Source: Aplectana chamaeleonis (taxonomy: Eukaryota > Nematoda > Chromadorea > Rhabditida > Cosmocercidae). From it: DNA of 64,000 bases. The position numbers and the translations under genes were made by a program. The notes under the pieces are model-generated. The model was not told where the DNA came from. It made no database searches and saw only the letters and a list, made by a program, of their open reading frames with translations. Shown here in pieces: positions 3,929 to 34,771 of the stretch. The stretch spans positions 124,001-188,000 of the forward strand of contig JAPDOI010001170.1 of NCBI GenBank assembly GCA_029168955.1, written 5' to 3'. Positions within the stretch are counted from its first letter, which is position 1. The number at the start of each line of letters is the position of its first letter.

Positions 3929-3932
3929 ATCG

Positions 3933-3955
3933 CTCCAGCCGCGAAGCGGCTGGAG
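3933..3955. repeat. Terminal GCGAAGC hairpin, copy A
   Basis: Perfect 10-bp arms, ctccagccgc and gcggctggag, close on a GAA loop. The core GCGAAGC is a DNA mini-hairpin known for unusual stability. It is followed by aggtttggtttt. Related hairpins occur at 8,791-8,813, 25,964-25,986, 45,738-45,760 and, reduced, near 43,810. Confidence 0.85.
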
Positions 3956-4165
3956 AGGTTTGGTTTTGCCTGGCACTTGTGATCACTTAGATTTTGGTAA
4001 AGTAGTTAATAAAACCTGTAAAACAAATTTTCTAGAGATTTCCTTCTGGATATAAGTGAGAGAGTATAGAAGACACCCGCTGACAAAATTTGAGCCAAAT
4101 CGATTGAAAATTAACAAAGTTAGATCGGCGGAAGCTTAGCTAAAATTCGCGTTTTTTCTTGTAAC

Positions 4166-4216
4166 GCGTCCCTCGTGTCCTGTTCCTCGTCCCTCGTCCC
4201 TCGTTCCTCGTTCGTA
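4166..4216. repeat. Short (ccctcgt/tcctcgt)n tract
   Basis: Seven- to eight-base repeats of the type tccctcgt and ttcctcgt inside the flank of the satellite element. The reverse complement is at about 25,710-25,760 in copy B. Confidence 0.75.
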
Positions 4217-4251
4217 CCACTAGCCACTGCCAGTGGTCGCAGGCTATCAGT

Positions 4252-7200
4252 ACATAGGGCATCTGATGACGTCATCAGGGTGTCATGTAAAGTACATAGG
4301 GCATCTGATGACGTCATCAGGGTGTCATGTAAAGTACATAAGGCATCTGATGACGTCATCAGGGTGTCATGTAAAGTACATAGGGCATCTGATGACGTCA
4401 TCAGGGTGTCATGTAAAGTACGCATAAGGCATCTGATGACGTCATCAGGGTGTCATGTAAAGTACATAGGGCATCTGATGACGTCATCAGGGTGTCATGT
4501 AAAGTACATAAGGCATCTGATGACGTCATCAGGGTGTCATGTAAAGTACATAAGGCATCTGATGACGTCATCAGGGTGTCATGTAAAGTACATAGGGCAT
4601 CTGATGACGTCATCAGGGTGTCATGTAAAGTACATAGGGCATCTGATGACGTCATCAGGGTGTCATGTAAAGTACATAAGGCATCTGATGACGTCATCAG
4701 GGTGTCATGTAAAGTACATAGGGCATCTGATGACGTCATCAGGATGTCATGTAAAGTACATAGGGCATCTGATGACGTCATCAGGGTGTCATGTAAAGTA
4801 CATAAGGCATCTGATGACGTCATCAGGGTGTCATGTAAAGTACATAGGGCATCTGATGACGTCATCAGGATGTCATGTAAAGTACATAGGGCATCTGATG
4901 ACGTCATCAGGTGTCATGTAAAGTACATAGGGCATCTGATGACGTCATCAGGGTGTCATGTAAAGTACATAAGGCATCTGATGACGTCATCAGGGTGTCA
5001 TGTAAAGTACATAGGGCATCTGATGACGTCATCAGGGTGTCATGTAAAGTACATAGGGCATCTGATGACGTCATCAGGGTGTCATGTAAAGTACATAGGG
5101 CATCTGATGACGTCATCAGGGTGTCATGTAAAGTACATAAGGCATCTGATGACGTCATCAGGGTGTCATGTAAAGTACATAGGGCATCTGATGACGTCAT
5201 CAGGGTGTCATGTAAAGTACATAGGGCATCTGATGACGTCATCAGGGTGTCATGTAAAGTACATAAGGCATCTGATGACGTCATCAGGGTGTCATGTAAA
5301 GTACATAAGGCATCTGATGACGTCATCAGGGTGTCATGTAAAGTACATAGGGCATCTGATGACGTCATCAGGGTGTCATGTAAAGTACATAGGGCATCTG
5401 ATGACGTCATCAGGGTGTCATGTAAAGTACATAAGGCATCTGATGACGTCATCAGGGTGTCATGTAAAGTACATAGGGCATCTGATGACGTCATCAGGAT
5501 GTCATGTAAAGTACATAGGGCATCTGATGACGTCATCAGGGTGTCATGTAAAGTACATAAGGCATCTGATGACGTCATCAGGGTGTCATGTAAAGTACAT
5601 AGGGCATCTGATGACGTCATCAGGGTGTCATGTAAAGTACATAGGGCATCTGATGACGTCATCAGGGTGTCATGTAAAGTACATAAGGCATCTGATGACG
5701 TCATCAGGGTGTCATGTAAAGTACATAGGGCATCTGATGACGTCATCAGGGTGTCATGTAAAGTACATAGGGCATCTGATGACGTCATCAGGGTGTCATG
5801 TAAAGTACATAGGGCATCTGATGACGTCATCAGGGTGTCATGTAAAGTACATAAGGCATCTGATGACGTCATCAGGGTGTCATGTAAAGTACATAGGGCA
5901 TCTGATGACGTCATCAGGGTGTCATGTAAAGTACATAGGGCATCTGATGACGTCATCAGGGTGTCATGTAAAGTACATAGGGCATCTGATGACGTCATCA
6001 GGGTGTCATGTAAAGTACATAGGGCATCTGATGACGTCATCAGGGTGTCATGTAAAGTACATAAGGCATCTGATGACGTCATCAGGGTGTCATGTAAAGT
6101 ACATAAGGCATCTGATGACGTCATCAGGTGTCATGTAAAGTACATAAGGCATCTGATGACGTCATCAGAGGTGTCATGTAAAGTACATAGGGCATCTGAT
6201 GACGTCATCAGGGTGTCATGTAAAGTACATAGGGCATCTGATGACGTCATCAGGGTGTCATGTAAAGTACATAGGGCGTCTGATGACGTCATCAGGGTGT
6301 CATGTAAAGTACATAGGGCATCTGATGACGTCATCAGGGTGTCATGTAAAGTACATAGGGCATCTGATGACGTCATCAGGGTGTCATGTAAAGTACATAG
6401 GGCATCTGATGACGTCATCAGGGTGTCATGTAAAGTACATAAGGCATCTGATGACGTCATCAGGATGTCATGTAAAATACATAGGGCATCTGATGACGTC
6501 ATCAGGGTGTCATGTAAAGTACATAGGGCATCTAATGACGTCATCAGGATGTCATGTAAAGTACATAGGGCATCTGATGACGTCATCAGGGTGTCATGTA
6601 AAGTACATAAGGCATCTGATGACGTCATCAGGGTGTCATGTAAAGTACATAGGGCATTTGATGACGTCATCAGGGTGTCATGTAAAGTACATAGGGCATC
6701 TGATGACGTCATCAGGGTGTCATGTAAAGTACATAGGGCATCTGATGACGTCATCAGGATGTCATGTAAAGTACATAGGGCATCTGATGACGTCATCAGG
6801 GTGTCATGTAAAGTAAATAAGGCATCTGATGACGTCATCAGGGTGTCATGTAAAGTACATAGGGCATCTGATGACGTCATCAGGATGTCATGTAAAGTAC
6901 ATAGGGCATCTGATGACGTCATCAGGGTGTCATGTAAAGTAAATAAGGCATCTGATGACGTCATCAGGGTGTCATGTAAAGTACATAGGGCATCTGATGA
7001 CGTCATCAGGATGTCATGTAAAGTACATAGGGCATCTGATGACGTCATCAGGGTGTCATGTAAAGTACATAGGGCATCTGATGACGTCATCAGGGTGTCA
7101 TGTAAAGTACATAGGGCATCTGATGACGTCATCAGGGTGTCATGTAAAGTACATAGGGCATCTGATGACGTCATCAGGGTGTCATGTAAAGTACATAGGG

Positions 7201-7590
7201 CATCTGATGACGTCATCAGGGTGTCATGTAAAGTGCATAGGGCATCTGATGACGTCATCAGGGTGTCATGTAAAGTACATAGGGCATCTGATGACGTCAT
7301 CAGGGTGTCATGTAAAGTACATAGGGCATCTGATGACGTCATCAGGATGTCATGTAAAGTACATAGGGCATCTGATGACGTCATCAGGGTGTCATGTAAA
7401 GTACATAGGGCATCTGATGGCGTCATCAGGATGTCATGTAAAGTACACAGGGCATCTGATGACGTCATCAGAACGTCGTGCCAAGTGCATAAAGCATCTG
7501 GTGACGCCATCAGACGTCGTGCAAAGGTTGTGCCAAGTGCATAGGGCATTTTCTGACATCATCAGGACGTCGTGGATAGTGAGTAGCGCT
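4252..7590 (+). repeat. 42-bp CRE-palindrome satellite array A
   Basis: About 79 tandem units of exactly 42 bp. Each unit contains the perfect 16-bp palindrome ctgatgacgtcatcag, with the full CRE/ATF core TGACGTCA, and a second inverted motif, atgta-aag-tacat. Variants are mostly single substitutions (aggg/aagg; cagggtg/caggatg). Units are near-perfect from the hairpin side and decay towards 7,400-7,590. Single-base indels at about 4,910, 6,128 and 6,168 shift the frame. All the long open frames across the array on both strands arise because 42 is a multiple of 3 and several frames of the unit lack stops. The array is judged non-coding. Confidence 0.95.
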
Positions 7591-7689
7591 TCATTTTTAG
7601 CGTGCGCAACAAGTTTGTTGCTTACTGATTATTATAGCAATCCATGCTATTCGAAAATTATTGAAGATTTTTCAGGGATATTACTTCGT

Positions 7690-8535
7690 AATATCAATAA
7701 AAAAGTGAACAATTCTATCAAAAGGTCTTCCAAGCAAAGAGGTTTGGTTGGCGTCAGAAACGTTCAACAAAAGGGAACAATAGGTAAAGTTGAATGAGGA
7801 GAGTCTACAAGAAGTGAACAATATTCTATCGAAAAGGGTCTTCCAAGCAAAGAGGTTTGGTTGGCGTCAGAAACGTTCCAACAAAAGGGAACAATAGGTA
7901 AGCAGAATGAGGAGTGTCTACAAAAGTGAACAATATTTTCTGAGACTGATTTTCCTGGCCGATACTTCTTAACAGTAAAAACAAACCGTTGCGGTGTTCT
8001 ACACGGAAGCCCTCTGTGGTTCCAAACATGGTCTTGACTACACGAGAACCGTTAAAAAGTATGTGCATGTAAACCTAATACTTACCATCAGAATAGAAGA
8101 TGATGCCAAAAACACAGACGGACGGTTAGCTCCAGCTGCTACGAGAAGCGAAACCAAAGTGCAGCATCTAATGAGAATATTTTTTAAATAATCTCGTCAA
8201 CGAATAGAAGTCCATTCTTGAAACCATTGAACTCTTCCTTGTGAAGTACCACAACGGTTTGTTTTTGCTGTTAAGAAGTATCGGCCAGGAAAGTCTCAGA
8301 AAATATTGTTCACTTTTTGTAGACACTCCTCATTCTGCTTACCTATTGTTCCCTTTTTGTTGGAACGTTTCTGACGCCAACCAAACCTCTTTTGCTTAGA
8401 AGACCCCTTTTCGATAGAATATTGTTCACTTCTTGTAGACTCTCCTCATTCAACTTACCTATTGTTCCCTTTTTGTTGGAACGTTTCTGACGCCAACCAA
8501 ACCTCTTTTGCTTGGAAGACCCCTTTTTGATAGAA
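7690..8535. repeat. Foldback at inner end of copy A
   Basis: Inverted arms at about 7,705-8,005 and 8,245-8,535 share the sequence from gtgaacaat through aacaaaccgttgcgg. The left arm includes a tandem duplication of a roughly 110-bp unit containing gaggtttggttggcgtcaga. The loop carries no recognisable gene. The same structure, more diverged, ends copy B at 18,917-19,560. Confidence 0.8.
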
Positions 8536-8790
8536 TGTTGAACTAACTTTTCTTTGCAATAACGGCGGTTTCCAGCGTTTTGAGTGCGAACAAAGCACTG
8601 CAACGTCAAATCTTGCTCCAAAAGAGTCCGCTTTTCATTTTGAAAACGTTTTCGCACTTCTCTAAACAAGTACCATCTGATAGTCTTACGAAATAACCAA
8701 ATCGATTCCAGAACTTTATCGGAACTTGCATAGTTACACCTCAAAATCCCTTGATATGAACTAATCAGACGGTTATAATAGATAGAATTG

Positions 8791-8813
8791 TGGTGAGCGC
8801 GAAGCGCTCACCA
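8791..8813. repeat. GCGAAGC-type hairpin upstream of the 21-bp array
   Basis: Arms tggtgagcgc and gcgctcacca (10 bp, perfect) around a GAA loop, followed by ggatttggcttt. The geometry and the 3' motif are the same as at 3,933, but the arm sequence differs. This suggests structure is conserved rather than sequence. Confidence 0.75.
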
Positions 8814-8998
8814 GGATTTGGCTTTGATCTCTTCCCGCGCGGATGCCCTACAATGAGATCACCTATTCATACCGTCAACAGAGGTATGAGCTGTACACTA
8901 TTCGACGCGCTGCAAGAAATTACATATGTGTGCAACTTTTCATCCCAATTGGTCCCCGCTTTCTGAAGTTATGACCTCTCAAAGTACGCAAAAACGTT

Positions 8999-9052
8999 CT
9001 CCACCACCGCCTCCGCCTCCGCCTCCGCCACCGCCTCCGCCTCCACCTCCGT
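8999..9052. repeat. (CCNCCN)n microsatellite
   Basis: Run of ccaccaccgcctccgcctcc-type hexamers and trimers. It encodes polyproline on one strand and poly-Arg/Trp on the other, which explains the short open frames on both strands. Not evidence of a gene. Confidence 0.85.
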
Positions 9053-9422
9053 CCGTCGAAAACCATTTTTTTGGAAGGCGTGGACCAAATCGCTCGAAAA
9101 TTTGTGACTAGATGTAATAGACCACGGGAATGACGAAAATAATTGTCAGAACTCACCATAATGACTTCTGGGCCCCTAACGGGCGTTTGAAACTCGGAAA
9201 CCGGCCTCTCAAGATTAGTCTATAAAAATGACGGGTTTTTCGTTATCAGTCATTGTTTTCTTAGAGACTCCATATAAATACCTTGCTCTAGGGTGGTGTA
9301 CTCTAAACGTCCGGCTTGGAACAGGACGCTATGCGGAAGGGTTGTTTTTGAGCGTGGCGCGTGTTTGTACCATGCGCACCAAAGATAAGAAGTCGTCGCA
9401 GGGTGTGCTGAAGTGTCGGTTG

Positions 9423-12400
9423 ACTATGCGAGACCGCAGTAGGAGTATGCAGGACGTCGTGGAACTACAGCAACCCCTCAGTAGGGGTGTGCAGGACGCC
9501 GTAGAATGTGTGCAGGACCTCAGTAGGAGTGTGCAGGACCTTAGTAGTAGTGTGCAGGACATCATGGAACCTGTGCAGGACCTCAGTAGGGGTGTGCAGG
9601 ACCTCAGTAGGAGTGCGCAGGACCTTAGTAGGAGTGTGCAGGACATCATGGGACCTGTGCAGGACCCCAGTAGGGGTGTGCAGGACCTCAGTAGGAGTGT
9701 GCAGGACATTTTGGGACCTGTGCAGGACCCCAGTAAGGGTGTGCAGGACGTCGTAGAATGTGTGCAGGACCTCAGTGGGAGTGTGCAGGACCTTAGTAGG
9801 AGTGTGCAGGACATCATGGGACCTGTGCAGGACCCTAGTAGGAGTGTGCAGGACCTCAGTAGGAGTGTGCATGACATTATGGGACCTGTACAGGACCTCA
9901 GTAGGAGTGCGCAGGATATCATGGAACGTGTGCAGGACCCCAGTAGGGGTGTGCAGGACGTCGTAGAATGTGTGCAGGACCTCAGTAGGAGTGTGCAGGG
10001 CCTTAGTAGGAGTGTGCAGGACATCATGGGACCTGTGCAGGACCCCAGTAGGAGTGTGCAGGACATCGTAGAATGGGTGCACAACATCAGTAGGAGTGTG
10101 CAGGACATCATGGGACCTGTGCAGGACCCCAGTAGGAGTGTGCAGGACATCGTAGAATGGGTGCAGGACCCCAGTAGGGGTGTGCAGGACGTCGTAGAAT
10201 GTGTGCAGGACCTTAGTAGGAGTGTGCAGGACATCATGAAACATGTGAAAGACCCCTGTAAGGATGAGCAGGACTTCATGGAATGTGTGCAGGACATCAG
10301 TAGGAGTGTGCAGGACATCATGAAGCGTGTGCAGGACCCCAGTAGAGTTGAGCAGGACGTCATGGAATGTGTGTAGGACCTTAGTAAAATTACACAGGAC
10401 ATCATAGAACGTGTGCAGGACCCCAATAGGGGTGTGCAGGACATCATGGAATGTGTGCAGGACCTTAGTAGGAGTGTGCAGGACATCATGAAACGTGTGC
10501 AAGACCCCTGTAAGGATGATCAGAACTTCGTGGAATGTGTGCAGGACATCAGTAGGAGTGTGCAGGACATCATGAAGCGTGTGCAGGACCCCAATAGGGG
10601 TGTGCAGGACATCATGGAATGTGTGCAGGACCTTAGTAGGAGTGTGCAGGACATCATGAAACGTGTGCAAGACCCCTGTAAGGATGATCAGAACTTCGTG
10701 GAATGTGTGCAGGACATCAGTAGGAGTGTGCAGGACATCATGAAACGTGTGCAAGACCCCTGTAAGGATGAGCAGGACTTCATGGAATGTGTGCTGGATC
10801 TCAGTAGGGGTGTGCAGGACGCCGTAGAATGTGTGCAGGACCTCAGTAGGAGTGTGCAGGACCTTAGTAGGAGTGTGCAGGACATCATGGGACCTGTGCA
10901 GGACCCCAGTAGGGGTGTGCAGGACGTCGTAGAATGTGTGCAGGACCTCAGTAGGAGTGTGCAGGACCTTAGTAGGAGTGTGCAGGACATCATGGGACCT
11001 GTGCAGGACCCCAGTAGGGGTGTGCAGGACCTCAGTAGGAGTGTGCAGGACATTTCGGGACCTGTGCAGGACCCCAGTAAGGGTGTGCAGGACGTCGTAG
11101 AATGTGTGCAGGACCTCATAGGAGTGTGCAGGACCTTAGTAGGAGTGTGCAGGACATCATGGGACCTGTGCAGGACCCCAGTAGGGGTGTGCAGGACCTC
11201 AGTAGGAGTGTGCATGACATTATGGGACCTGTACAGGACCTCAGTAGGAGTGCGCAGGATATCATGGAACGTGTGCAGGACCCCAGTAGGGGTGTGCAGG
11301 ACGTCGTAGAATGTGTGCAGGACCTCAGTAGGAGTGTGCAGGACCTTAGTAGGAGTGTGCAGGACATCATGGGACCTGTGCAGGACCCCAGTAGGAGTGT
11401 GCAGGACATCATGGAACCTGTGTAGGACCCCAGTAGGGGTGTGCAGGACATCGTAGAATGTGTGCAGAACATCAGTAGGAGTGTGCAGGACATCATGGGA
11501 CCTGTGCAGGACCCCAGTAGGGGTGTGCAGGACGTCGTAGAATGTGTGCAGGACCTTAGTAGGAGTGTGCAGGACATCATGAAACATGTGCAAGACCCCT
11601 GTAAGGATGAGCAGGACTTCATGGAATGTGTGCAGGACATCAGTAGGAGTGTGCAGGACATCATGAAGCGTGTGCAGGACCCCAGTAGGGTTGAGCAGGA
11701 CGTCATGGAATGTGTGTAGGACCTTAGTAAAATTACACAGGACATCATGGAACGTGTGCAGGACCCCAATAGGGGTGTGCAGGACATCATGGAATGTGTG
11801 CAGGACCTTAGTAGGAGTGTGCAGGACATCATGAAACGTGTGCAAGACCCCTGTATGGATGATCAGAACTTCGTGGAATGTGTGCAGGACATCAGTAGGA
11901 GTGTGCAGGACATCATGAAGCGTGTGCAGGACCCCAATAGGGGTGTGCAGGACATCATGGAATGTGTACAGGACCTTAGTAGGAGTGTGCAGGACATCAT
12001 GAAACGTGTGCAAGACCCCTGTAAGGATGATCAGAACTTCGTGGAATGTGTGCAGGACATCAGTAGGAGTGTGCAGGACATTATGGGACCTGTACAGGAC
12101 CTCAGTAGGAGTGCGCAGGATATCATGGAACGTGTGCAGGACCCCAGTAGGGGTGTGCAGGACGTCGTAGAATGTGTGCAGGACCTCAGTAGGAGTGTGC
12201 AGGACCTTAGTAGGAGTGTGCAGGACATCATGGGACCTGTGCAGGACCCCAGTAGGAGTGTGCAGGACATCATGGAACCTGTGTAGGACCCCAGTAGGGG
12301 TGTGCAGGACATCGTAGAATGTGTGCAGAACATCAGTAGGAGTGTGCAGGACATCATGGGACCTGTGAAGGACCCCAGTAGGGGTGTGCAGGACGTCGTA

Positions 12401-15400
12401 GAATGTGTGCAGGACCTTAGTAGGAGTGTGCAGGACATCATGAAACATGTGAAAGACCCTGTAAGGATGAGCAGGACTTCATGGAATGTGTGCAGGACAT
12501 CAGTAGGAGTGTGCAGGACATCATGAAGCGTGTGCAGGACCCCAGTAGGGTTGAGCAGGACGTCATGGAATGTGTGTAGGACCTTAGTAAAATTACACAG
12601 GACATCATGGAACGTGTGCAGGACCCCAATAGGGTGTGCAGGACATCATGGAATGTGTGCAGGACCTTAGTAGGAGTGTGCAGGACATCATGAAACGTGT
12701 GCAAGACCCTGTATGGATGATCAGAACTTCGTGGAATGTGTGCAGGACATCAGTAGGAGTGTGCAGGACATCATGAAGCGTGTGCAGGACCCCAATAGGG
12801 GTGTGCAGGACATCATGGAATGTGTACAGGACCTTAGTAGGAGTGTGCAGGACATCATGAAACGTGTGCAAGACCCCTGTAAGGATGATCAGAACTTCGT
12901 GGAATGTGTGCAGGACATCAGTAGGAGTGTGCAGGACATTATGGGACCTGTAGAGGACCTCAGTAGGAGTGCGCAGGATATCACGGAAGGTGTGCAGGAC
13001 CCCAGTAGGGTGTGCAGGACGTCGTAGAATGTGTGCAGGACCTCAGTAGGAGTGTGCAGGACCTTAGTAGGAGTGTGCAGGAAATCATGGGACCTGTGCA
13101 GGACCCCAGTAGGAGTGTGCAGGACATCATGGAACCTGTGTAGGACCCCAGTAGGGGTGTGCAGGACATCGTAGAATGTGTGCAGAACATCAGTAGGAGT
13201 GTGCAGGACATCATGGGACCTGTGCAGGACCCCAGTAGGGGTGTGCAGGACGTCGTAGAATGTGTGCAGGACCTTAGTAGGAGTGTGCAGGACATCATGA
13301 AACATGTGAAAGACCCCTGTAAGGATGAGCAGGACTTCATGGAATGTGTGCAGGACATCAGTAGGAGTGTGCAGGACATCATGAAGCGTGTGCAGGACCC
13401 CAGTAGGGTTGAGCAGGACGTCATGGAATGTGTGTAGGACCTTAGTAAAATTACACAGGACATCATGGAACGTGTGCAGGACCCCAATAGGGTGTGCAGG
13501 ACATCATGGAATGTGTGCAGGACCTTAGTAGGAGTGTGCAGGACATCATGAAACGTGTGCAAGACCCCTGTATGGATGATCAGAACTTCGTGGAATGTGT
13601 GCAGGACATCAGTAGGAGTGTGCAGGACATCATGAAGCGTGTGCAGGACCCCAATAGGGGTGTGCAGGACATCATGGAATGTGTACAGGACCTTAGTAGG
13701 AGTGTGCAGGACATCATGAAACGTGTGCAAGACCCTGTAAGGATGATCAGAACTTCGTGGAATGTGTGCAGGACATCAGTAGGAGTGTGCAGGACATCAT
13801 GAAACGTGTGCAAGACCCTGTAAGGATGAGCAGGACTTCATGGAATGTGTGCTGGATCTCAGTAGGGGTGTGCAGGACGCCGTAGAATGTGTGCAGGACC
13901 TCAGTAGGAGTGTGCAGGACCTTAGTAGGAGTGTGCAGGACATCATGGGACCTGTGCAGGACCCCAGTAGGGGTGTGCAGGACGTCGTAGAATGTGTGCA
14001 GGACCTCAGTAGGAGTGTGCAGGACCTTAGTAGGAGTGTGCAGGACATCATGGGACCTGTGCAGGACCCCGGTAGGGGTGTGCAGGACCTCAGTAGGAGT
14101 GTGCAGGACATTTTGGGACCTGTGCAGGACCCCAGTAAGGGTGTGCAGGACGTCGTAGAATGTGTGCAGGACCTCAGTGGGAGTGTGCAGGACCTTAGTA
14201 GGAGTGTGCAGGACATCATGGGACCTGTGCAGGACCCCAGTAGGGGTGTGCAGGACCTCAGTAGGAGTGTGCATGACATTATGGGACCTGTACAGGACCT
14301 CAGTAGGAGTGCGCAGGATATCATGGAACGTGTGCAGGACCCCAGTAGGGGTGTGCAGGACGTCGTAGAATGTGTGCAGGACCTCAGTAGTAGTGTGCAG
14401 GACCTTAGTAGGAGTGTGCAGGACATCATGGGACCTGTGCAGGACCCCAGTAGAAGTGTGCAGGACATCATGGAACCTGTGTAGGACCCCAGTAGGGGTG
14501 TGCAGGACATCGTAGAATGTGTGCAGAACATCAGTAGGAGTGTGCAGGACATCATGGGACCTGTGCAGGACCCCAGTAGGGGTGTGCAGGACGTCGTAGA
14601 ATGTGTGCAGGACCTTAGTAAAATTACACAGGACATCATGGAACGTGTGCAGGACCCCAATAGGGGTGTGCAGGACATCATGGAATGTGTGCAGGACCTT
14701 AGTAGGAGTGTGCAGGACATCATGAAACGTGTGCAAGACCCCTGTATGGATGATCAGAACTTCGTGGAATGTGTGGAGAACATCAGTAGGAGTGTGCAGG
14801 ACATCATGGGACCTGTGCAGGACCCCAGTAGGGGTGTGCAGGACGTCGTAGAATGTGTGCAGGACCTTAGTAGGAGTGTGCAGGACATCATGGGACCTGT
14901 GCAGGACCCCAGTAGGGTTGAGCAGGACGTCATGGAATGTGTGTAGGACCTTAGTAAAATTACACAGGACATCATGGAACGTGTGCAGGACCCCAATAGG
15001 GTGTGCAGGACATCATGGAATGTGTGCAGGACCTTAGTAGGAGTGTGCAGGACATCATGAAACGCGTGCAAGACCCCTGTATGGATGATCAGAACTTCGT
15101 GGAATGTGTGCAGGACATCAGTAGGAGTGTGCAGGACATCATGAAGCGTGTGCAGGACCCCAATAGGGGTGTGCAGGACATCATGGAATGTGTACAGGAC
15201 CTTAGTAGGAGTGTGCAGGACATCATGAAACGTGTGCAAGACCCCTGTAAGGATGATCAGAACTTCGTGGAATGTGTGCAGGACATCAGTAGGAGTGTGC
15301 AGGACATCATGAAACGTGTGCAAGACCCCTGTAAGGATGAGCAGGACTTCATGGAATGTGTGCTGGATCTCAGTAGGGGTGTGCAGGACGCCGTAGAATG

Positions 15401-16564
15401 TGTGCAGGACCTCAGTAGGAGTGTGCAGGACCTTAGTAGGAGTGTGCAGGACATCATGGGACCTGTGCAGGACCCCAGTAGGGGTGTGCAGGACGTCGTA
15501 GAATGTGTGCAGGACCTCAGTAGGAGTGTGCAGGACCTTAGTAGGAGTGTGCAGGACATCATGGGACCTGTGCAGGACCCCGGTAAGTGTGCAGGACCTC
15601 AGTAGGAGTGTGCAGGACATTTTGGGACCTGTGCAGGACCCCAGTAAGGGTGTGCAGGACGTCGTAGAATGTGTGCAGGACCTCAGTGGGAGTGTGCAGG
15701 ACCTTAGTAGGAGTGTGCAGGACATCATGGGACCTGTGCAGGACCCCAGTAGGGGTGTGCAGGACCTCAGTAGGAGTGTGCATGACATTATGGGACCTGT
15801 ACAGGACCTCAGTAGGAGTGCGCAGGATATCATGGAACGTGTGCAGGACCCCAGTAGGGGTGTGCAGGACGTCGTAGAATGTGTGCAGGACCTCAGTAGT
15901 AGTGTGCAGGACCTTAGTAGGAGTGTGCAGGACATCATGGGACCTGTGCAGGACCCCAGTAGAAGTGTGCAGGACATCATGGAACCTGTGTAGGACCCCA
16001 GTAGGGGTGTGCAGGACATCGTAGAATGTGTGCAGAACATCAGTAGGAGTGTGCAGGACATCATGGGACCTGTGCAGGACCCCAGTAGGGGTGTGCAGGA
16101 CGTCGTAGAATGTGTGCAGGACCTTAGTAAAATTACACAGGACATCATGGAACGTGTGCAGGACCCCAATAGGGGTGTGCAGGACATCATGGAATGTGTG
16201 CAGGACCTTAGTAGGAGTGTGCAGGACATCATGAAACGTGTGCAAGACCCCTGTAAGGATGATCAGAACTTCGTGGAATGTGTGCAGGACATCAGTAGGA
16301 GTGTGCAGGACATCATGAAGCGTGTGCAGGACCCCAATAGGGGTGTGCAGGACATCATGGAATGTGTGCAGGACCTTAGTAGGAGTGTGCAGGACATCAT
16401 GAAACGTGTGCAAGACCCCTGTAAGGATGATCAGAACTTCGTGGAATGTGTGCAGGACATCATGAAACGTGTGCAAGACCCCTGTAAGGATGAGCAGGAC
16501 TTCATGGAATGTGTGCTGGATCTCAGTAGGGGTGTGCAGGACCTCAGTTCAATGTTCAGGACAC
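9423..16564 (+). repeat. 21-bp satellite array with higher-order structure
   Basis: About 340 units of 21 bp, nearly all beginning gtgcaggac (or gtgcaagac). The last 12 bases define recurrent unit types, e.g. ctcagtaggagt, atcatgggacct, cccagtaggggt and gtcgtagaatgt. Types occur in a fixed order, producing higher-order repeats. The rare unit with gtgctggatctcag recurs at about 10,791, 13,849, 15,360 and 16,513, and the 1,511-bp spacing equals about 72 units. Scattered one-base deletions (e.g. near 12,456, 12,632 and 13,740) break the frame. The heptad-like translation (VQDLSRS and relatives) and the antisense frames are therefore treated as by-products. Confidence 0.93.
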
Positions 16565-16744
16565 TGTATGCAAGCCAGGCCTCCGAATCTACAAGAACGA
16601 TAGTTAAGTCCGCCAGAACAGGGCTACCGTAATCTCACTCGAGTTGGCTCTAAAATTTTCTAAGTTCTGACTCCGATTTCGCTTCATCTTCCCTACAGGT
16701 GGTGATGTTTCACTGCTTTTTAGTCCAGGCAGATCCTCAACTGC

Positions 16745-18591
16745 TGACCCCTAGAGAAGGACGGTGTGTGAATCAAGACACACCGCTCTTCACTTCTTTT
16801 ATACTTTATCATTGATCAATTGGGTATCATCAAATTTGTTTACGAGAGCCGAATAACATCATTCCTGAGATTACGGTAGTCCTCTTCTGGCGCACTTAAC
16901 TATCGTTCGCGCTGGAAATCAATTTCCATTTTTCAGGCTCAATTTCATGATTGAGCCCGGTAGACCACACTGGTAAACTTTGGCGAGTCAAAAACGTTGG
17001 ACGGTGAGGTTAATATCCGCCACCAATTCTCACCAGTCATCTAGCCCTTTTTCCTAGAATGTTGGTGCGACAGTAAGATAACAGGAAAAATTGGTTACGG
17101 CACGAACTCCACATGCAGAAAAACTCCGAAAATGATTTTGGCGCGAAATTCAAATTCGTATTTACAATGTGTTCCGATTGACTTTTCTTTACAAATGAAG
17201 GTTTTTCATGGGCCCCTTCAACATTTTCTTTCACTAGAGGGGCCAAGCTACGCAAAACTCATAGAAATGATGAAAAACTCTGATAAAGAGGCCTGATACT
17301 GCGCTATCAATCATTGTTTTTATTAGAGCTCTACGGAAATACTTCGACTGGTAGCCTCACCAATGGGCCGTTCATTTCATTTCTGTCTTGAGTGGTGCGT
17401 GCCCCCCCCCCGTCTAGAAGAGTGCCTAGAACCTGTACAATTGGGTCATTTTGAAACTCATTTCTTCATTTTTCGACTTTTAAATTCAAAAAGTATTTGC
17501 CTTGCATCTATTTGTAGGAAGCCGCGTTGCAACAATTATCTTGCAGTCTTAGCAGCGGAGCGGTTGTTTCTTCATTTCTACCACTATGTTTTCGAAAAAA
17601 AAACAACTTGACTTCTGGAGCTCGACGATATTGTAGAAGGGAAACCCTTGTAAAAGTTGTGAAATTTCTGAAAGTTGGGCTCCGCAGAAAAGGTCAAGGA
17701 TTTGGCATTGCTCCTAAATGTTGTGAAATTGTTTTATTGGATTTGGCTCTCAACTTGATTTTTCAAATGTAGTGAAATTGTCGAATTGATTTGGCTGCGA
17801 TGATACTATATGCAGATAACATAATCATTAAATCTAGTGAAATTGTTGCAAACGGATTTGGCAGGAGCTCTATCAATTATCACAGTCAAATCACGCGTCA
17901 GAAGGTCCTCTGGCGAGCGAATGAAGACAAAAAGAAAAAAATAATAATCCTCAGTCAACAATGCTGAACGAAACGTGGCCTTATGGGCTAGAATTAAGGT
18001 TTCCGAATGCTATTCTGCCCTTTCAGTGTAGCTCCCACTAGCAATAAGGTACCAGACCTTCCCTCACCGATGAGATAAAAATCATGAAAACGAAATCTAA
18101 CGCAATTTACTCGCTACTGACTCTATGTCTTCGTGTCCTCAACGCTTTCACGGTTCGCATTGTATAGAAACGTTTTTTGCTGGTAGGTTTATTCCTGTTC
18201 TCATTCGATTCAATATGCGCTTCAAGGAAAACCCCTTCTGACGCGTGATTTGACTGTGATAATTGATAGAGCTCCTGCCAAATCCGTTTGCAACAATTTC
18301 ACTAGATTTAATGATTATGTTATCTGCATATAGTATCATCGCAGCCAAATCAATTCGACAATTTCACTACATTTGAAAAATCAAGTTGAGAGCCAAATCC
18401 AATAAAACAATTTCACAACATTTAGGAGCAATGCCAAATCCTTGACCTTTTCTGCGGAGCCCAACTTTCAGAAATCTGTCATTTAAAATTCTCACGGTAA
18501 ACAAAATTGATGATACCCAATTGATAAAGGGTAGGGTATAAAAGAAATTGAGAGCGGTGTGTTTTCATTCACACACCGTCATTCTCCGAAG
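16745..18591. repeat. Nested foldback between the satellites
   Basis: Outer arms (about 16,756-16,843 and 18,497-18,591) share gacggtgtgtgaa, a TATA-like tract and attgggtatcatcaa. Each outer arm contains its own small ggtgtg...cacacc hairpin. Inner arms (17,664-17,905 and 18,234-18,475) are each 242 bp and are near-perfect reverse complements. The two pairs are not concentric, so the structure grew by nested insertion or duplication. No transposase; short open frames only. Confidence 0.8.
16918..17262. repeat. Dispersed repeat D, copy 1
   Basis: Closely related to 63,228-63,600. Shared blocks include ttcaggctcaatttcatga, tccacatgcagaaaaact, aaattcaaattc and aggccaagctac. It lies in the loop of the foldback. 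The short minus-strand open frame here has no recognisable domain. Confidence 0.75.
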
Positions 18592-18916
18592 GTGAGCGGC
18601 TGGAGCTCAACACACTAGGGATTAGGGAGACAGCCTCACCGGTGATAAAGATAACACGATATTGGGGCCTACTCATGGAAAACTCTGGCAAGAAAAACTA
18701 TTTCACTTTCGTGAGAATTTTGTGCCGGTGGCAAATTATAATCCTGTCAATTCGTCATTTTTGAAGTGAGCTATGTCCACGCGGCGTTTTGAGCAAGCAA
18801 AATTCACCGCTAGACCCCGTTTTGACAAAAAATCTGCTAGGTCCTGCAGTTGCGTATTATTGCATCCCAAAATCAATGGATTTTAAGTGAACAATCTGGT
18901 CGCTATGATTTATTCT
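18592..18916. other. Unassigned spacer
   Basis: About 325 bp between the foldback and satellite element B. Nothing recognised. Confidence 0.4.
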
Positions 18917-19560
18917 ATCAAAAAGGGGTCTTCCAAGCGAAAGAGGTTTGGTTGGCGTCAGAAACGTCCCAACAAAAAGAGAACAATAGGTAAGTAGATT
19001 GAGGAGAGTCTACAAAAAGTGAACAATATTCTCTGAGAGTAATTTTTCTTGGTGAACACTTCTTAACAGCGGAAACAAACCGTTGTGGCATTTTACGATG
19101 ATGGGTATAGTGTCTTTCGGAAAAAGCACTTCTATTCGTTTAGCGAGATTTTACGGGATTACTCTTGCTTAATGCTGTATTTCTATTTTATTGTTTTGCT
19201 TCTCCTTACAGCAAGACCTAACAGTCTGTCTAAGTCTTTGCGACGTCATCTTCTATTCTGATGGTAAGAGTTAGGTTTACATGCACATACGTTTAAACGG
19301 TTCTTGCGTAATCAAGACCATTATTGGAACCACAGAAAGCTTCTGTGTAGAACACCGCAACGGTTTGTTTTCGCTGTTAAGAAGTGTTCACCAAGAAAAA
19401 TTACTCTCAGAGAATATTGTTCACTTTTTGTAGACTCTCCTCAATCTACTTACCTATTGTTCCCTTTTTGTTGGAACGTTTCTGACGCCAACCAAACCTC
19501 TTTCGCTTGGAAGACCCTTTTGATAGAATTGTTCACTTTTTATTGATATTACGAAGTAAT
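18917..19560. repeat. Foldback at inner end of copy B
   Basis: Arms of about 190 bp (18,917-19,100 and 19,350-19,545) share cttccaagcgaaagaggttt, aacaataggtaagtag and acaaaccgttg. This is the counterpart of the foldback at 7,690-8,535, but without the tandem duplication in one arm. Confidence 0.8.
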
Positions 19561-19667
19561 ATCTATGAAAAAATCTTCAATATTTTTCAAATAGCATTGA
19601 TTGCTATAATAATCAGTAAGCAACAAACTTGTTGCGCACGCTACGAATTAAGCGCTACTCACTTTCC

Positions 19668-22600
19668 ACGACGTCCTGATGAAGTCATCAGATGCCCTAT
19701 GTACTTTACATGACACCATGATGACGTCATCAGATGCACTATGTTCTTTACATGACATCCTAATGACGTCATCAGATGCCCTATGTACTTTACGTGACAT
19801 CCTGACGACGTCATCAGATGCCCTATGTACTTTACATGACACCCTGATGACGTCATCAGATGCCCTATGTACTTTACATGGCATCCTGATGACGCCATCA
19901 GATGCCCTATGTACTTTACATGACATCCTAATGACGTCATCAGATGCCCTATGTACTTTAGATGACACCTTGATGACGTCTTCAGAAGCCCTATGTACTT
20001 TGCATGACACCCTGATGACGTCATCAGATGCCCTATGTACTTTGCATGACACCCTGATGACGTCATCAGATGCCCTGTGTACTTTACATGACACTCTGAT
20101 GACGTCATCAGATGCCCTATGTACTTTGCATGACACCCTGATGACGTCATCAGATGCCCTATGTACTTTACATGACATCCTGATGACGTCATCAGATGCC
20201 CTATGTACTTTACATGACACCCTGATGACGTCATCAGATGCCCTATGTACTTTACATGACACCCTGATGACGTCATCAGATGCCCTATGTACTTTACATG
20301 ACACCCTGATGACGTCATCAGATGCCCTATGTACTTTACATGACACCCTTTTGACGTCATCAGATGCCCTATGTACTTTACATGACACCCTGATGACGTC
20401 ATCAGATGCCCTATGTACTTTACATGACACCCTTTTGACGTCATCAGATGCCCTATGTACTTTACATGACACCTTGATGACGTCATCAGATGCCCTATGT
20501 ACTTTACATGACATCCTGATGACGTCATCAGATGCCCTATGTACTTTACATGACACCTTGATGACGTCATCAGATGCCCTATGTACTTTACATGACATCC
20601 TGATGACGTCATCAGATGCCCTATGTACTTTACATGACACCCTGATGACGTCATCAGATGCCCTATGTACTTTACATGACACCCTTTTGATGTCATCAGA
20701 TGCCCTATGTACTTTACATGAGACCTTGATGACGTCATCAGATGCCCTATGTACTTTACATGACATCCTGATGACGTCATCAGATGCCCTATGTACTTTA
20801 CATGACACCCTTTTGATGTCATCAGATGCCCTATGTACTTTACATGAGACCTTGATGACGTCATCAGATGCCCTATGTACTTTACATGACATCCTGATGA
20901 CGTCATCAGATGCCCTATGTACTTTACATGACACCCTGATGACGTCATCAGATGCCCTATGTACTTTACATGACACCCTGATGACGTCATCAGATGCCCT
21001 ATGTACTTTACATGACACCCTGATGACGTCATCAGATGCCCTATGTACTTTACATGACATCCTGATGACGTCATCAGATGCCCTATGTACTTTACATGAC
21101 ACCCTGATGACGTCATCAGATGCCCTATGTACTTTACATGACACCCTGATGACGTCATCAGATGCCCTATGTACTTTACGTGACACCCTTATGACGTCAT
21201 CAGATGCCCTATGTACTTTACATGACATCTTGATGACGTCATCAGATGCCCTATGTACTTTACATGACACCCTGATGACGTCATCAGATGCCCTATGTAC
21301 TTTACATGACACCCTGATGACGTCATCAGATGCCCTATGTACTTTACATGACATCTTGATGACGTCATCAGATGCCCTATGTACTTTACATGACACCCTG
21401 ATGACGTCATCAGATGCCCTATGTACTTTACATGACACCCTGATGACGTCATCAGATGCCCTATGTACTTTACATGACACCCTTTTGACGTCATCAGATG
21501 CCCTATGTACTTTACATGACACCTTGATGACGTCATCAGATGCCCTATGTACTTTACATGACATCCTGATGACGTCATCAGATGCCCTATGTACTTTACA
21601 TGACACCTTGATGACGTCATCAGATGCCCTATGTACTTTACATGACATCCTGATGACGTCATCAGATGCCCTATGTACTTTACATGACACCCTGATGACG
21701 TCATCAGATGCCCTATGTACTTTACATGACACCCTTTGACGTCATCAGATGCCCTATGTACTTTACATGACACCTTGATGACGTCATCAGATGCCCTATG
21801 TACTTTACATGACATCCTGATGACGTTATCAGATGCCCTATGTACTTTACATGACACCCTGATGACGTCATCAGATGCCCTATGTACTTTACATGACACC
21901 CTTTTTGACGTCATCAGATGCCCTATGTACTTTACATGACACCTTGATGACGTCATCAGATGCCCTATGTACTTTACATGACACCCTGATGACGTCATCA
22001 GATGCCCTATGTACTTTACATGACACCCTGATGACGTCATCAGATGCCCTATGTAACTTTACATGACACCCTTTTGACGTCATCAGATGCCCTATGTACT
22101 TTACATGACACCCTGATGACGTCATCAGATGCCCTATGTACTTTACATGACACCCTTTTGACGTCATCAGATGCCCTATGTACTTTACATGACACCTTGA
22201 TGACGTCATCAGATGCCCTATGTACTTTACATGACATCCTGATGACGTCATCAGATGCCCTATGTACTTTACATGACACCTTGATGACGTCATCAGATGC
22301 CCTATGTACTTTACATGACATCCTGATGACGTCATCAGATGCCCTATGTACTTTACATGACACCCTGATGACGTCATCAGATGCCCTATGTACTTTACAT
22401 GACACCTTGATGACGTCATCAGATGCCCTATGTACTTTACATGACATCCTGATGACGTCATCAGATGCCCTATGTACTTTACATGACACCCTGATGACGT
22501 CATCAGATGCCCTATGTATTTTACATGACACCCTTTTGACGTCATCAGATGCCCTATGTACTTTACATGACACCTTGATGACGTCATCAGATGCCCTATG

Positions 22601-25600
22601 TACTTTACATGACACCCTGATGGCGTCATCAGATGCCCTATGTACTTTACATGACACCCTGATGACGTCATCAGATGCCCAATGTACTTTACATGACATC
22701 CTGATGACGTCATCAGATGCCCTATGTACTTTACATGACACCCTGATGACGTCATCAGATGCCCTATGTACTTTACATGACACCCTGATGACGTCATCAG
22801 ATGCCCTATGTACTTTACATGACACCCTGATGACGTCATCAGATGCCCTATGTACTTTACATGACACCCTGATGACGTCATCAGATGCCCTATGTACTTT
22901 ACATGACACCCTGATGACGTCATCAGATGCCCTATGTACTTTACATGACACCCTGATGACGTCATCAGATGCCCTATGTACTTTACATGACACCCTGATG
23001 ACGTCATCAGATGCCCTATGTACTTTACATGACATCCTGATGACGTCATCAGATGCCCTATGTACTTTACATGACACCCTGATGACGTCATCAGATGCCC
23101 TATGTACTTTACATGACACCCTGATGACGTCATCAGATGCCCTATGTACTTTACGTGACACCCTTATGACGTCATCAGATGCCCTATGTACTTTACATGA
23201 CATCTTGATGACGTCATCAGATGCCCTATGTACTTTACATGACACCCTGATGACGTCATCAGATGCCCTATGTACTTTACATGACATCTTGATGACGTCA
23301 TCAGATGCCCTATGTACTTTACATGACATCTTGATGACGTCATCAGATGCCCTATGTACTTTACATGACACCCTGATGACGTCATCAGATGCCCTACGTA
23401 CTTTACATGACACCCTTTTGACGTCATCAGATGCCCTATGTACTTTACATGACACCTTGATGACGTCATCAGATGCCCTATGTACTTTACATGACACCCT
23501 GATGACGTCATCAGATGCCCTATGTACTTTACATGACACCCTTTTGACGTCATCAGATGCCCTATGTACTTTACATGACACCTTGATGACGTCATCAGAT
23601 GCCCTATGTACTTTACATGACATCCTGATGACGTCATCAGATGCCCTATGTACTTTACATGACACCTTGATGACGTCATCAGATGCCCTATGTACTTTAC
23701 ATGACATCCTGATGACGTCATCAGATGCCCTATGTACTTTACATGACACCCTGATGACGTCATCAGATGCCCTATGTACTTTACATGACACCCTTTTGAT
23801 GTCATCAGATGCCCTATGTACTTTACATGAGACCTTGATGACGTCATCAGATGCCCTATGTACTTTACATGACATCCTGATGACGTCATCAGATGCCCTA
23901 TGTGCTTTACATGACACCCTGATGACGTCATCAGATGCCCTATGTACTTTACATGACACCCTGATGACGTCATCAGATGCCCTATGTACTTTACATGACA
24001 CCCTGATGACGTCATCAGATGCCCTATGTACTTTACATGACATACTGATGACGTCATCAGATGCCCTATGTACTTTACATGACACCCTGATGACGTCATC
24101 AGATGCCCTATGTACTTTACATGACACCCTGATGACGTCATCAGATGCCCTATGTACTTTACATGACACCCTGATGACGTCATCAGATGCCCTATGTACT
24201 TTACATGACACCCTGATGACGTCATCAGATGCCCTATGTACTTTACATGACATCCTGATGACGTCATCAGATGCCCTATGTACTTTACATGACACCCTGA
24301 TGACGTCATCAGATGCCCTATGTACTTTACATGACACCCTGATGACGTCATCAGATGCCCTATGTACTTTACGTGACACCCTTATGACGTCATCAGATGC
24401 CCTATGTACTTTACATGACATCTTGATGACGTCATCAGATGCCCTATGTACTTTACATGACACCCTGATGACGTCATCAGATGCCCTATGTACTTTACAT
24501 GACATCTTGATGACGTCATCAGATGCCCTATGTACTTTACATGACATCTTGATGACGTCATCAGATGCCCTATGTACTTTACATGACACCCTGATGACGT
24601 CATCAGATGCCCTATGTACTTTACATGACATCTTGATGACGTCATCAGATGCCCTATGTACTTTACATGACATCTTGATGACGTCATCAGATGCCCTATG
24701 TACTTTACATGACACCCTGATGACGTCATCAGATGCCCTATGTACTTTACATGACATCTTGATGACGTCATCAGATGCCCTATGTACTTTACATGACATC
24801 TTGATGACGTCATCAGATGCCCTATGTACTTTACATGACACCCTGATGACGTCATCAGATGCCCTATGTACTTTACATGACATCTTGATGACGTCATCAG
24901 ATGCCCTATGTACTTTACATGACATCTTGATGACGTCATCAGATGCCCTATGTACTTTACATGACACCCTGATGACGTCATCAGATGCCCTATGTACTTT
25001 ACATGACATCTTGATGACGTCATCAGATGCCCTATGTACTTTACATGACATCTTGATGACGTCATCAGATGCCCTATGTACTTTACATGACACCCTGATG
25101 ACGTCATCAGATGCCCTATGTACTTTACATGACATCTTGATGACGTCATCAGATGCCCTATGTACTTTACATGACATCTTGATGACGTCATCAGATGCCC
25201 TATGTACTTTACATGACACCCTGATGACGTCATCAGATGCCCTATGTACTTTACATGACATCTTGATGACGTCATCAGATGCCCTATGTACTTTACATGA
25301 CATCTTGATGACGTCATCAGATGCCCTATGTACTTTACATGACACCCTGATGACGTCATCAGATGCCCTATGTACTTTACATGACATCTTGATGACGTCA
25401 TCAGATGCCCTATGTACTTTACATGACATCTTGATGACGTCATCAGATGCCCTATGTACTTTACATGACATCTTGATGACGTCATCAGATGCCCTATGTA
25501 CTTTACATGACACCCTGATGACGTCATCAGATGCCCTATGTACTTTACATGACATCTTGATGACGTCATCAGATGCCCTATGTACTTTACATGACATCTT

Positions 25601-25670
25601 GATGACGTCATCAGATGCCCTATGTACTTTACATGACACCCTGATGACGTCATCAGATGCCCTATGTACT
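19668..25670 (-). repeat. 42-bp CRE-palindrome satellite array B
   Basis: About 143 units of the same 42-bp satellite in inverted orientation. The five common variants differ in the bases before the CRE: caccctgatgac, catcctgatgac, caccttgatgac, catcttgatgac and cacccttttgac; all keep TGACGTCA. Units near 19,670-20,000 are degenerate. From about 24,461 to 25,640 a strict three-unit (126-bp) higher-order repeat runs to the hairpin side. The rare unit with tgacacccttatgac at 21,180, 23,157 and 24,374 marks larger segmental duplications, about 47 and 29 units apart. Frame-breaking indels lie at about 21,733, 21,902 and 22,054. Confidence 0.95.
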
Positions 25671-25963
25671 GATAGCCTGCGACCACTGGCAGTGGCTAGT
25701 GGCGCGAACGAGGAACGAGGGACGAGGAACGAGGAACAGGACACGAGGGACGCGTTACAAGAAAAAACGCGAATTTTAGCTAAGCTTCCGCCGATCTAAC
25801 TTTGTTAATTTTCAATCGATTTGGCTCAAATTTTGTCAGCGGGTGTCTTCTATACTCTCTCACTTATATCCAGAAGGAAATCTCTAGAAAATTTGTTTTA
25901 CAGGTTTTATTAACTACTTTACCAAAATCTAAGTGATCACAAGTGCCAGGCAAAACCAAACCT

Positions 25964-25986
25964 CTCCAGCCGCTTCGCGGCTGGAG
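25964..25986. repeat. Terminal GCGAAGC hairpin, copy B
   Basis: Reverse complement of the hairpin at 3,933-3,955, with identical 10-bp arms and a GAA/TTC loop. It is followed on the outside by gcgat, after which the two loci diverge. Confidence 0.85.
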
Positions 25987-25990
25987 CGAT

Positions 25991-31164: not shown

Positions 31165-31527
31165 AACACCTTACCTTGATACCTTGATGGTCCATCTTCA
31201 CTGCGCGTCGCCGCCGTGTGGACCACACCTCAACCAGCTCGACCGATCCCGAGCAAGGGACATCCAGTTTCAGGAAGCCCTGTCTCGGTGCAGAACGTCT
31301 TGACTCTGCTTGAAAATACAGAGTTCCATCTTGTGGGAGGACGGCCTAGAGGCCGGCGGCAATCACGTGGTAATCAGACTGTTGTACGGAGGCTCCATCG
31401 GTCATCCATGCGCCGCAACACGTGCCCTGCCCATCGGTGTTTAGACTGGGCCATGAACAGAAGCGTGTTCAATAACTGCGACTGTTTCCGAAGATCAGCA
31501 CTGCGTAGGCCACTAGCTCGCTACTGT
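31165..31527 (-). mobile_element. 5'-truncated RTE 3' end (R1b)
   Basis: Reverse complement of about 34,385-34,745, including the C-terminal coding part and a tail of caaggtaaggt-type repeats. It lies head-to-head with the longer copy that follows. It may be a separate 5'-truncated insertion or the inverted half of a twin-primed insertion. Confidence 0.75.
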
Positions 31528-34679: not shown

Positions 34680-34771
34680 GATGTGGTTCACACGGCGGCG
34701 ACGCGCAGTGAAGATGGATCATCAAGGTTTCAAGGTAAGGTAAAACATATTATAGTTCACCGCAATGTTAA

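What the first reader, a model, noticed from the sequence alone, without database searches (positions are those of the whole stretch)
4252..25670. More than 200 copies of a perfect CRE/ATF palindrome in a satellite
Seen: each 42-bp unit has ctgatgacgtcatcag, a 16-bp perfect palindrome containing TGACGTCA, plus a second inverted motif (atgta-aag-tacat). The TGACGTCA core survives in most variants, including those that break the outer palindrome (cttttgacgtcatcag, cttatgacgtcatcag). Known: TGACGTCA is the full binding site for CREB/ATF bZIP factors, and GATGACGT cores are also used by unfolded-protein-response bZIPs. Inference: the arrays could act as a sink or assembly platform for bZIP proteins, or the site may be retained only by array homogenisation.
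Basis: partly seen in the sequence, partly recalled or inferred. Interest (0 to 1): 0.85.

Follow-up and report, generated by a model that had tools for sequence, protein, structure and literature searches.

The report
CRE-palindrome satellite inside Helitron-like transposons
The repeated DNA-switch sites are real, but they belong to two copies of a widespread jumping element that carries this repeat as cargo, and the sites are about as well preserved as the rest of the repeat, so a role as a protein-binding platform is possible but not shown.

Summary
The window holds 211 TGACGTCA cores, 210 of them in two 42-bp arrays (76 and 134); only 151 lie in the perfect 16-bp palindrome. The arrays run in opposite directions, 12 kb apart.

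They are not a free satellite. They belong to two independent copies of a non-autonomous, Helitron-like transposon (3930-8535 and 18913-25989). All 19 further copies fetched carry the same 3' module and a CRE array (40-209 cores in reach). Most copies begin T(T)CTATC and all end in a GAA-loop hairpin plus CGA. One insertion into a Penelope-like element is exact: joined flanks match an empty copy over 300 of 300 columns without gaps, no target-site duplication, between A and T. The plan matches HINE elements; the CTRR end of classic Helitrons is absent.

Across 2,623 units in 21 arrays the core is intact in 92.3%, rank 8 of 42 8-mers; single-copy mutations in it are nearly as frequent as elsewhere (P=0.28; distinct variants P=0.065). 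A relative with the same hairpin end carries a 145-bp satellite without CRE. Best reading: transposon-borne, homogenised satellite, CRE incidental. bZIP binding is untested but plausible: C. elegans Helitrons carry HSF-1-bound arrays (PMC6927752).

The parts
3930..8535 (-). Copy L of the Helitron-like element (5' end at 8535, 3' end at 3930), subfamily A
   Evidence: boundaries; different inner flanks in the copies; 5' module 94.7-97.9% to L009, L010, L022 in the main aligned piece
18913..25989 (+). Copy R of the Helitron-like element, subfamily B, inverted relative to copy L
   Evidence: 5' module 96-99% to L011, L014, L015, L016, L018, L019, L021, L024 and C91R, but 82% (634 bp) and 93.5% (232 bp) to copy L
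4249..7513 (-). 42-bp CRE satellite array, about 78 units, 76 intact TGACGTCA
   Evidence: TRF
19661..25670 (+). 42-bp CRE satellite array, about 143 units, 134 intact TGACGTCA, 3-unit higher-order repeat in the outer 33 units
   Evidence: TRF
3930..4248 (-). 3' module (called FD in the report) of copy L
   Evidence: found in the 19 other loci fetched at 99-100%
25672..25989 (+). 3' module (FD) of copy R
   Evidence: 99.06% over 320 bp to copy L
3933..3955 (-). 3' terminal hairpin, 10-bp stem and GAA/TTC loop
   Evidence: fold z-score -5.0
25964..25986 (+). 3' terminal hairpin, 10-bp stem and TTC loop, followed by CGA|T
7602..8535 (-). 5' module (called ID) of copy L, starting TTCTATCAAAAAGGGG
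18913..19639 (+). 5' module (ID) of copy R
18942..18953 (+). 5' subterminal inverted repeat AGAGGTTTGGTT; a 32-bp stretch including it has a perfect inverted copy inside the 5' module
   Evidence: shuffle P 0.008 for the 5'/3' match
25954..25965 (-). 3' subterminal inverted repeat AGAGGTTTGGTT

Best explanation
The two arrays are the central satellites of two independent copies of one family of non-autonomous, Helitron-like transposon with the HINE plan: 5' module with subterminal inverted repeat and its inverted copy, then a tandem 42-bp array, then a 3' module with the matching subterminal repeat and a terminal hairpin. Shown: a precise 3' end, a nearly precise 5' end, A|T junctions, no target-site duplication in the one empty site found, an identical terminal 250 bp in the 22 copies compared. 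Inferred: copies are made by a Rep/helicase supplied by the Helitrons of the same genome; the hairpin acts as the 3' end signal; the array grows and is kept uniform by unequal exchange or replication slippage after insertion. The CRE core is retained because the whole unit is homogenised, not because a bZIP protein selects it.
For: All 19 further loci fetched carry the 3' module plus a CRE array, and the 16 whose stretch runs past the array carry the 5' module. The sequence beyond the inner edge of the 5' module differs in 16 of 16 loci and both window copies; in 14 of the 16 the edge lies at or within about 15 bases of the same point, in L012 and L017 about 20 bases short of it. 3' junctions: CGA|T followed by T or A in 22 of 22; the T is favoured by how hits were chosen, the T-or-A after it is not. 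5' junctions: A before T(T)C in 16 of 17 listed, of which L012 may be internal; L016 has C. Empty site: joined flanks of the L015 copy match Penelope-like element copies; L034 300/300 columns, 99.0%, 0 gaps; 10 of 11 such loci at 95.7-99.0% and one at 81%, 8 of 11 without gaps. Copies L and R are of different subfamilies. 42 places with Helitron_like_N (PF14214), open frames to 3,351 aa. Core not clearly more conserved within arrays. Relative with the same hairpin end but a 145-bp, CRE-free satellite.
Against: The 3' end is GCGA, not the CTRR of classic Helitrons (CTRR rule recalled). Only one empty site was examined. No Rep/Hel copy with these ends was found: the single 2.5-kb stretch looked at beside a Helitron gene (L043) has two other GAA-loop hairpins (stems of 7 and 9 bp) but not this family's stem or CCAAACC motif, and may not reach that Helitron's end. 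The fetched copies were the best-scoring 19 of 38, so identity is biased upward. C91 holds an inverted pair of the same subfamily, which alone would fit a foldback. Distinct variants in the core are somewhat fewer (P=0.065; third lowest of 42 windows), and an older related satellite keeps the palindrome better than the rest (1 of 16 against 8 of 26 positions changed, P=0.063), a hint of constraint.
Confidence: 0.75

Rival explanations
1. The arrays are selected bZIP (CREB/ATF/XBP-1-like) binding platforms: the transposon recruits a host factor for its own transcription or opening, or spreads cAMP/stress-responsive elements near genes.
For: Full consensus CRE in 92.3% of 2,623 units; core 8/8 and palindrome 15/16 unchanged in a diverged satellite; precedent: Helitron-borne HSEs are bound by HSF-1 and rewire the heat shock response in C. 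elegans (PMC6927752, abstract and passages).
Against: No significant excess conservation within arrays; edge units lose the core as fast as other 8-mers (6 of 12 intact against a mean of 6.6); a TGACATCA unit occurs in 3 copies; the relative in L016 lacks CRE altogether.
Confidence: 0.15
2. The palindrome serves the element's own DNA life cycle: binding site for the Rep/helicase, or hairpins on the displaced single strand that aid replication and array growth.
For: A 16-bp perfect palindrome is improbable in a random 42-bp unit (0.0005); Helitrons are thought to go through single-stranded intermediates (recalled); in Galileo, TIR repeats hold transposase sites (stated in PMC4079207, passage).
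Against: Single-strand fold of the unit is only modest (z -1.8); paired compensatory changes in the palindrome are rare, 12 of 55 two-sided changes against 995 one-sided; the 145-bp unit of the relative has no perfect palindrome of 8 bp or more.
Confidence: 0.2
3. One 22-kb foldback (Mutator/Tetris/Tm1-like) element whose terminal inverted repeats contain the satellite.
For: Inverted arrangement with 99% identical outer ends; C91 has a second inverted pair, both of subfamily B; nematode foldbacks with tandem-repeat TIRs exist (PMC3169594, abstract and passages).
Against: In the window the two arms belong to different subfamilies; each arm ends at its own inner boundary, seen also in 16 other loci; no inverted hairpin end within 14.5 kb inward of the L009 copy; no target duplication.
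Confidence: 0.03

Closest known systems
HINE elements (non-autonomous Helentrons), e.g. Cg_HINE of Crassostrea gigas (PMC7492417, passages read)
   Same: 5' subterminal repeat and its inverted copy, central satellite-like array, 3' subterminal repeat and terminal palindrome, no target duplication; related flanks can carry different satellites
   Different: arrays here reach over 200 units (longest in the oyster sample 29 monomers); target is A|T followed by T or A rather than oligo-T; Helentron Rep partner not identified
C. elegans Helitrons with satellites / HSE arrays (PMC4595182 passages; PMC6927752 abstract and passages)
   Same: nematode Helitron carrying a palindromic transcription-factor-site satellite; one HelitronY4_CE copy carries 96 HSEs
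   Different: site is a CRE/ATF palindrome, not HSE; binding untested; the unit was not searched against C. elegans
Tetris / Tm1 / Galileo foldback transposons (PMC4079207 abstract, two sections, passages; PMC3169594 abstract, passages)
   Same: transposon-borne tandem repeats next to the ends, non-autonomous copies
   Different: no terminal inverted repeat pairing within one copy, no 8-10 bp target duplication in the one empty site
Classic Helitron (Helitron1)
   Same: A|T insertion, no target duplication, TC-like 5' end, 3' hairpin
   Different: no CTRR 3' end (rule recalled); hairpin lies 3 bases from the end

Membership tests
HINE / non-autonomous Helentron | subterminal inverted repeats in both modules and an inverted copy in the 5' module | tested here: met
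   tested on copy R: AGAGGTTTGGTT 12/12 at both ends, shuffle P 0.008; perfect 32-bp inverted copy in the 5' module
HINE / non-autonomous Helentron | palindrome near the 3' end | tested here: met
   10-bp stem hairpin 3 bases from the end in 22 of 22 copies
HINE / non-autonomous Helentron | central tandem array | tested here: met
   19 of 19 fetched loci and both window copies
HINE / non-autonomous Helentron | no target-site duplication | tested here: met
   one empty site, L034 300/300 columns, 0 gaps
HINE / non-autonomous Helentron | insertion in oligo-T / T-T | tested here: inconclusive
   observed A|T then T or A; A|TT in the empty site
HINE / non-autonomous Helentron | autonomous partner with Helentron-type Rep | not tested
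   PF14214 present at 42 places but ends and Rep motif not compared
Classic Helitron | A|T target, 5' TC, 3' hairpin | tested here: met
   5' end is TC or TTC; A before it in 16 of 17
Classic Helitron | 3' CTRR (recalled) | tested here: not met
   end is GCGA in 17 of 17 junctions listed
Foldback (Mutator-type) transposon | long terminal inverted repeats of one element | tested here: not met
   in the window, arms from different subfamilies with own inner ends
Foldback (Mutator-type) transposon | 8-10 bp target duplication | tested here: not met
   none in the empty site; across the 22-kb span no exact repeat longer than 2 bases, only a gapped 6-of-9 match
Functional bZIP (CREB/ATF) site array | binding by a bZIP protein | not testable with these tools
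   no binding data held
Functional bZIP (CREB/ATF) site array | core more conserved than the rest of the unit | tested here: inconclusive
   P=0.28 (single-copy), P=0.065 (distinct variants) within arrays; P=0.12 core, 0.063 palindrome between satellites

The most novel reading that the evidence does not exclude
A Helitron-like family has seeded the genome with very many consensus CREs per insertion (76 and 134 in the window, 40-209 in reach in the 19 other loci fetched), and these arrays are bound by a nematode CREB/ATF or stress bZIP, either titrating it or putting nearby genes and the element itself under cAMP/stress control: a CREB counterpart of the HSF-1/Helitron case.
Probability: 0.15. 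Interest if true: 0.75.

Novelty: new variant of a known kind. Interest (0 to 1): 0.45.

Why it matters
It moves the finding from a curious satellite to a transposon family that spreads dense transcription-factor-site arrays. If bound, it would be a second case in nematodes, after HSEs in Helitrons, of a satellite-carrying element redistributing a regulatory site, and so a test of whether this recurs. The empty site, the A|T target and the different satellites found behind closely related 3' modules also show how satellites can be loaded onto and dispersed by such elements.

Tried and rejected
Foldback element: my first reading, rejected. Target duplication across the 22-kb span: only a gapped 6-of-9 match, chance 3.4%. 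Hammerhead ribozyme (CTGATGA motif recalled): no Rfam match at gathering score and, in 3700-26300, 23 matches up to E 1, all miRNA families far below cut-off. Coding satellite: no homologue at E 0.001 for a 170-aa satellite frame (only the 7,994 candidates sharing most words were scored), none at E 0.01 among 134 candidates for a 154-aa frame of the 5' module. Penelope-like origin of the 5' module: suggested by a GIY-YIG frame running into it, rejected when the match to the other listed copies ended at the junction (nearly all stop by residue 130-131, one at 136) and the flanks joined cleanly. Exact matches in the viral and the bacterial/archaeal collections: none (the tool warns that records of this genome may be left out). 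A two-unit query of the older satellite found nothing genome-wide, but the tool skips common words, so this shows nothing. No similarity of the unit to either module was found. In one search my script set the core one base off, so its lines on 'core intact 0 of 17' and the printed core letters are wrong; one search gives the right core (0 of 8 changed; 13 intact cores in that array). Literature: TGACGTCA with satellite or tandem-repeat terms gave 0 papers; one search listed 10 of 11 papers, none opened. No binding data could be had with these tools.

Full report
OBSERVATION. Tandem Repeats Finder reports 42-bp arrays at 4249-7513 and 19661-25670. The window has 211 TGACGTCA: 76 and 134 in the arrays and one at 38205. 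The perfect 16-mer CTGATGACGTCATCAG occurs 74 + 77 = 151 times. Outside the arrays 1 core is found against 0.83 expected. The arrays run in opposite orientation. A random 42-bp unit of the same composition has a perfect 16-bp palindrome with probability 0.0005, so the palindrome itself is not trivial. That it is a CRE is less telling: there are only 256 self-complementary 8-mers and many known factors bind such sites (established knowledge).

HOST. The reverse transcriptase in the window is closest to Necator americanus proteins (69% identity for the best), so the source is probably a nematode of the hookworm kind (inference). The assembly has 1.04 Gb in 2,087 contigs and the window lies on C288.

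WHAT CARRIES THE ARRAYS. The sequence outside each array is the same: a 320-bp 3' module (called FD), 99.06% identical between the two sides, ending in a 10-bp-stem hairpin with a GAA loop (fold z -5.0). A search with it scored 40 of 1,342 candidates; all 40 (two of them the window's own) matched over the full length or all but one base at 99-100%. All 19 have the 3' module and a CRE array (40 to 209 cores within reach), and 16 of 19 also show the 5' module (ID); the other three arrays run to the end of the stretch. Among 22 copies the last 250 bp are identical in all 231 pairs; these were picked by score, so the figure is biased upward.

BOUNDARIES. The inner edge of the 5' module..GGAAGACCCCTTTTTGATAGA, is a boundary: beyond it each of 16 loci and both window copies has different sequence. 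In 14 of the 16 the edge falls at or within about 15 bases of that point; L012 and L017 stop about 20 bases short. In some loci (L012, L025, L026) the 5' module is itself partly inverted or rearranged. So the mobile unit is 5' module + array + 3' module, and the window holds two copies, 3930-8535 and 18913-25989. They are not arms of one element. The 5' module of copy R is 96-99% identical to subfamily B (L011, L014, L015, L016, L018, L019, L021, L024, C91R). That of copy L is 94.7-97.9% identical, in the main aligned piece, to L009, L010 and L022, 94.2% to L023 and 92.0% to L017, with L012, L025 and L026 matching in pieces at 88-94%. The two window copies are 82% identical over 634 bp and 93.5% over the adjoining 232 bp.

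INSERTION. Read 5' to 3', most copies begin T(T)CTATC (L010 TCAATC) and all 22 end ..GGCTGGAGCGA. The base after the end is T followed by T or A in 22 of 22; the T is favoured by the way hits were chosen. The base before the start is A in 16 of 17 listed; L016 has C, and L012 may be an internal repeat. The copy in L015 lies in a Penelope-like element (GIY-YIG frame, E 5.4e-8). Its two flanks joined match uninterrupted copies of that element: L034 over 300 of 300 columns at 99.0% without gaps, 10 of 11 loci at 95.7-99.0% and one at 81%, 8 of 11 gap-free. The insertion is therefore exact, between A and T, without a target-site duplication. This is the behaviour of Helitrons (A|T insertion, 3' hairpin and conserved ends named as hallmarks in PMC5714489, passages).

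ARCHITECTURE. In copy R, AGAGGTTTGGTT is shared in inverted orientation by both ends (shuffle P 0.008), and a 32-bp stretch around it has a perfect inverted copy in the 5' module. Subterminal repeats, an inverted copy, a central satellite and a 3' palindrome without target duplication are the plan of HINE elements as described in PMC7492417 (passages). The CTRR end of classic Helitrons (recalled) is absent, so I do not file it as a classic Helitron. The genome has 42 Helitron_like_N matches with open frames up to 3,351 aa, so replication machinery exists, but no partner with these ends was found. One 2.5-kb stretch near such a gene showed two other GAA-loop hairpins (stems of 7 and 9 bp) but not this family's stem or motif, and it may have missed that element's end.

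IS THE CORE RETAINED? In the window's 222 full units the core ranks 10th of 42 8-mers. In the 12 inner-edge units it is intact in 6, against a mean of 6.6 for all 8-mers. Over 2,623 units of 21 arrays (19 loci and the window's two) it is intact in 2,421 (92.3%), rank 8 of 42. Variants seen once: 16.4 per core position against 17.8 elsewhere, permutation P 0.28. Distinct variants: 23.1 against 28.0, P 0.065, third lowest of 42 windows. Two-sided changes in the palindrome number 55, of which 12 are complementary, against 995 one-sided. Variation is dominated by amplified blocks: a three-unit repeat in the outer 33 units of the right array and repeated multi-unit blocks inside. A core-broken unit (TGACATCA) occurs in 3 copies. 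This is what homogenisation gives.

RELATIVES. Beside the L016 copy lies another element with a 94% identical 3' module and the same hairpin end. Its array is a 145-bp satellite, with no TGACGTCA in 3,150 bases and no perfect palindrome of 8 bp or more in the unit. Closely related 3' modules thus carry different satellites, and this one does without the CRE. Beside the L024 copy lies an older relative (3' module 76.5% over 196 bp) with 17 units of a 42-bp satellite whose consensus differs at 9 of 42 positions: none of 8 in the core (P 0.12), 1 of 16 in the palindrome against 8 of 26 outside (P 0.063); 13 cores are intact. With the P 0.065 above this is the only hint of constraint on the palindrome, and neither reaches significance.

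MECHANISM. Shown: family, ends, target, one empty site, uniform units. Inferred: rolling-circle copying by a Helitron Rep/helicase in trans, the 3' hairpin as end signal, array growth by unequal exchange or slippage, CRE carried along. Not excluded: binding by CREB/ATF-type proteins. In C. [quoted passage not shown] one HelitronY4_CE copy carries 96 (PMC6927752, abstract and passages). Caenorhabditis satellite families often hold palindromes and some ride on Helitrons (PMC4595182, passages).

Noticed in passing
window 9424-16563: A second array between the two copies, 21/42-bp units (CAGTAGGAGTGTGCAGGAC), open in long but broken frames on both strands; an exact 11-base piece of it was not printed for any of the 19 other loci.
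   Followed up: partly
window 17664-18475: Perfect 242-bp inverted repeat (17664-17905 / 18475-18234) flanked by a further 90-bp inverted pair.
   Followed up: no
window 45733-45772, 43813, 8791-8813: Further GAA-loop hairpins. At 45733 the 3' end of the element recurs at 92.5% over 40 bp with a G-T pair in the stem; at 43813 half of it; at 8791 a different stem with the same loop and a similar downstream motif: probably ends of related families.
   Followed up: partly
L043 395-434 (C65): Two adjacent GAA-loop hairpins (stems 7 and 9 bp) in the one stretch read beside a Helitron_like_N gene; relation to this family's end unknown.
   Followed up: no
window 31168-34741, 44032-45319, 48219-53271: Several non-LTR retroelements (RVT_1, Exo_endo_phos), two stretches inverted at 94.7%, with long TA microsatellites.
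   Followed up: no
L018+L029 (C91), L024+L030 (C14), L016 (C155): Neighbouring copies within about 500 bp: an inverted pair 420 bp apart (C91), an inverted older relative (C14), a direct relative (C155). With the window's pair this may be more clustering than chance; not tested.
   Followed up: no
window 4249, 9433, 9478, 19661, 37637, 37768, 37931, 38840: Several tandem arrays of the window have periods of 21 or 42 bp; other periods occur too.
   Followed up: no
G000 genome: Penelope-like elements with GIY-YIG are very numerous (10,767 first-look candidates; of the 150 scored, some open frames exceed 950 aa).
   Followed up: partly
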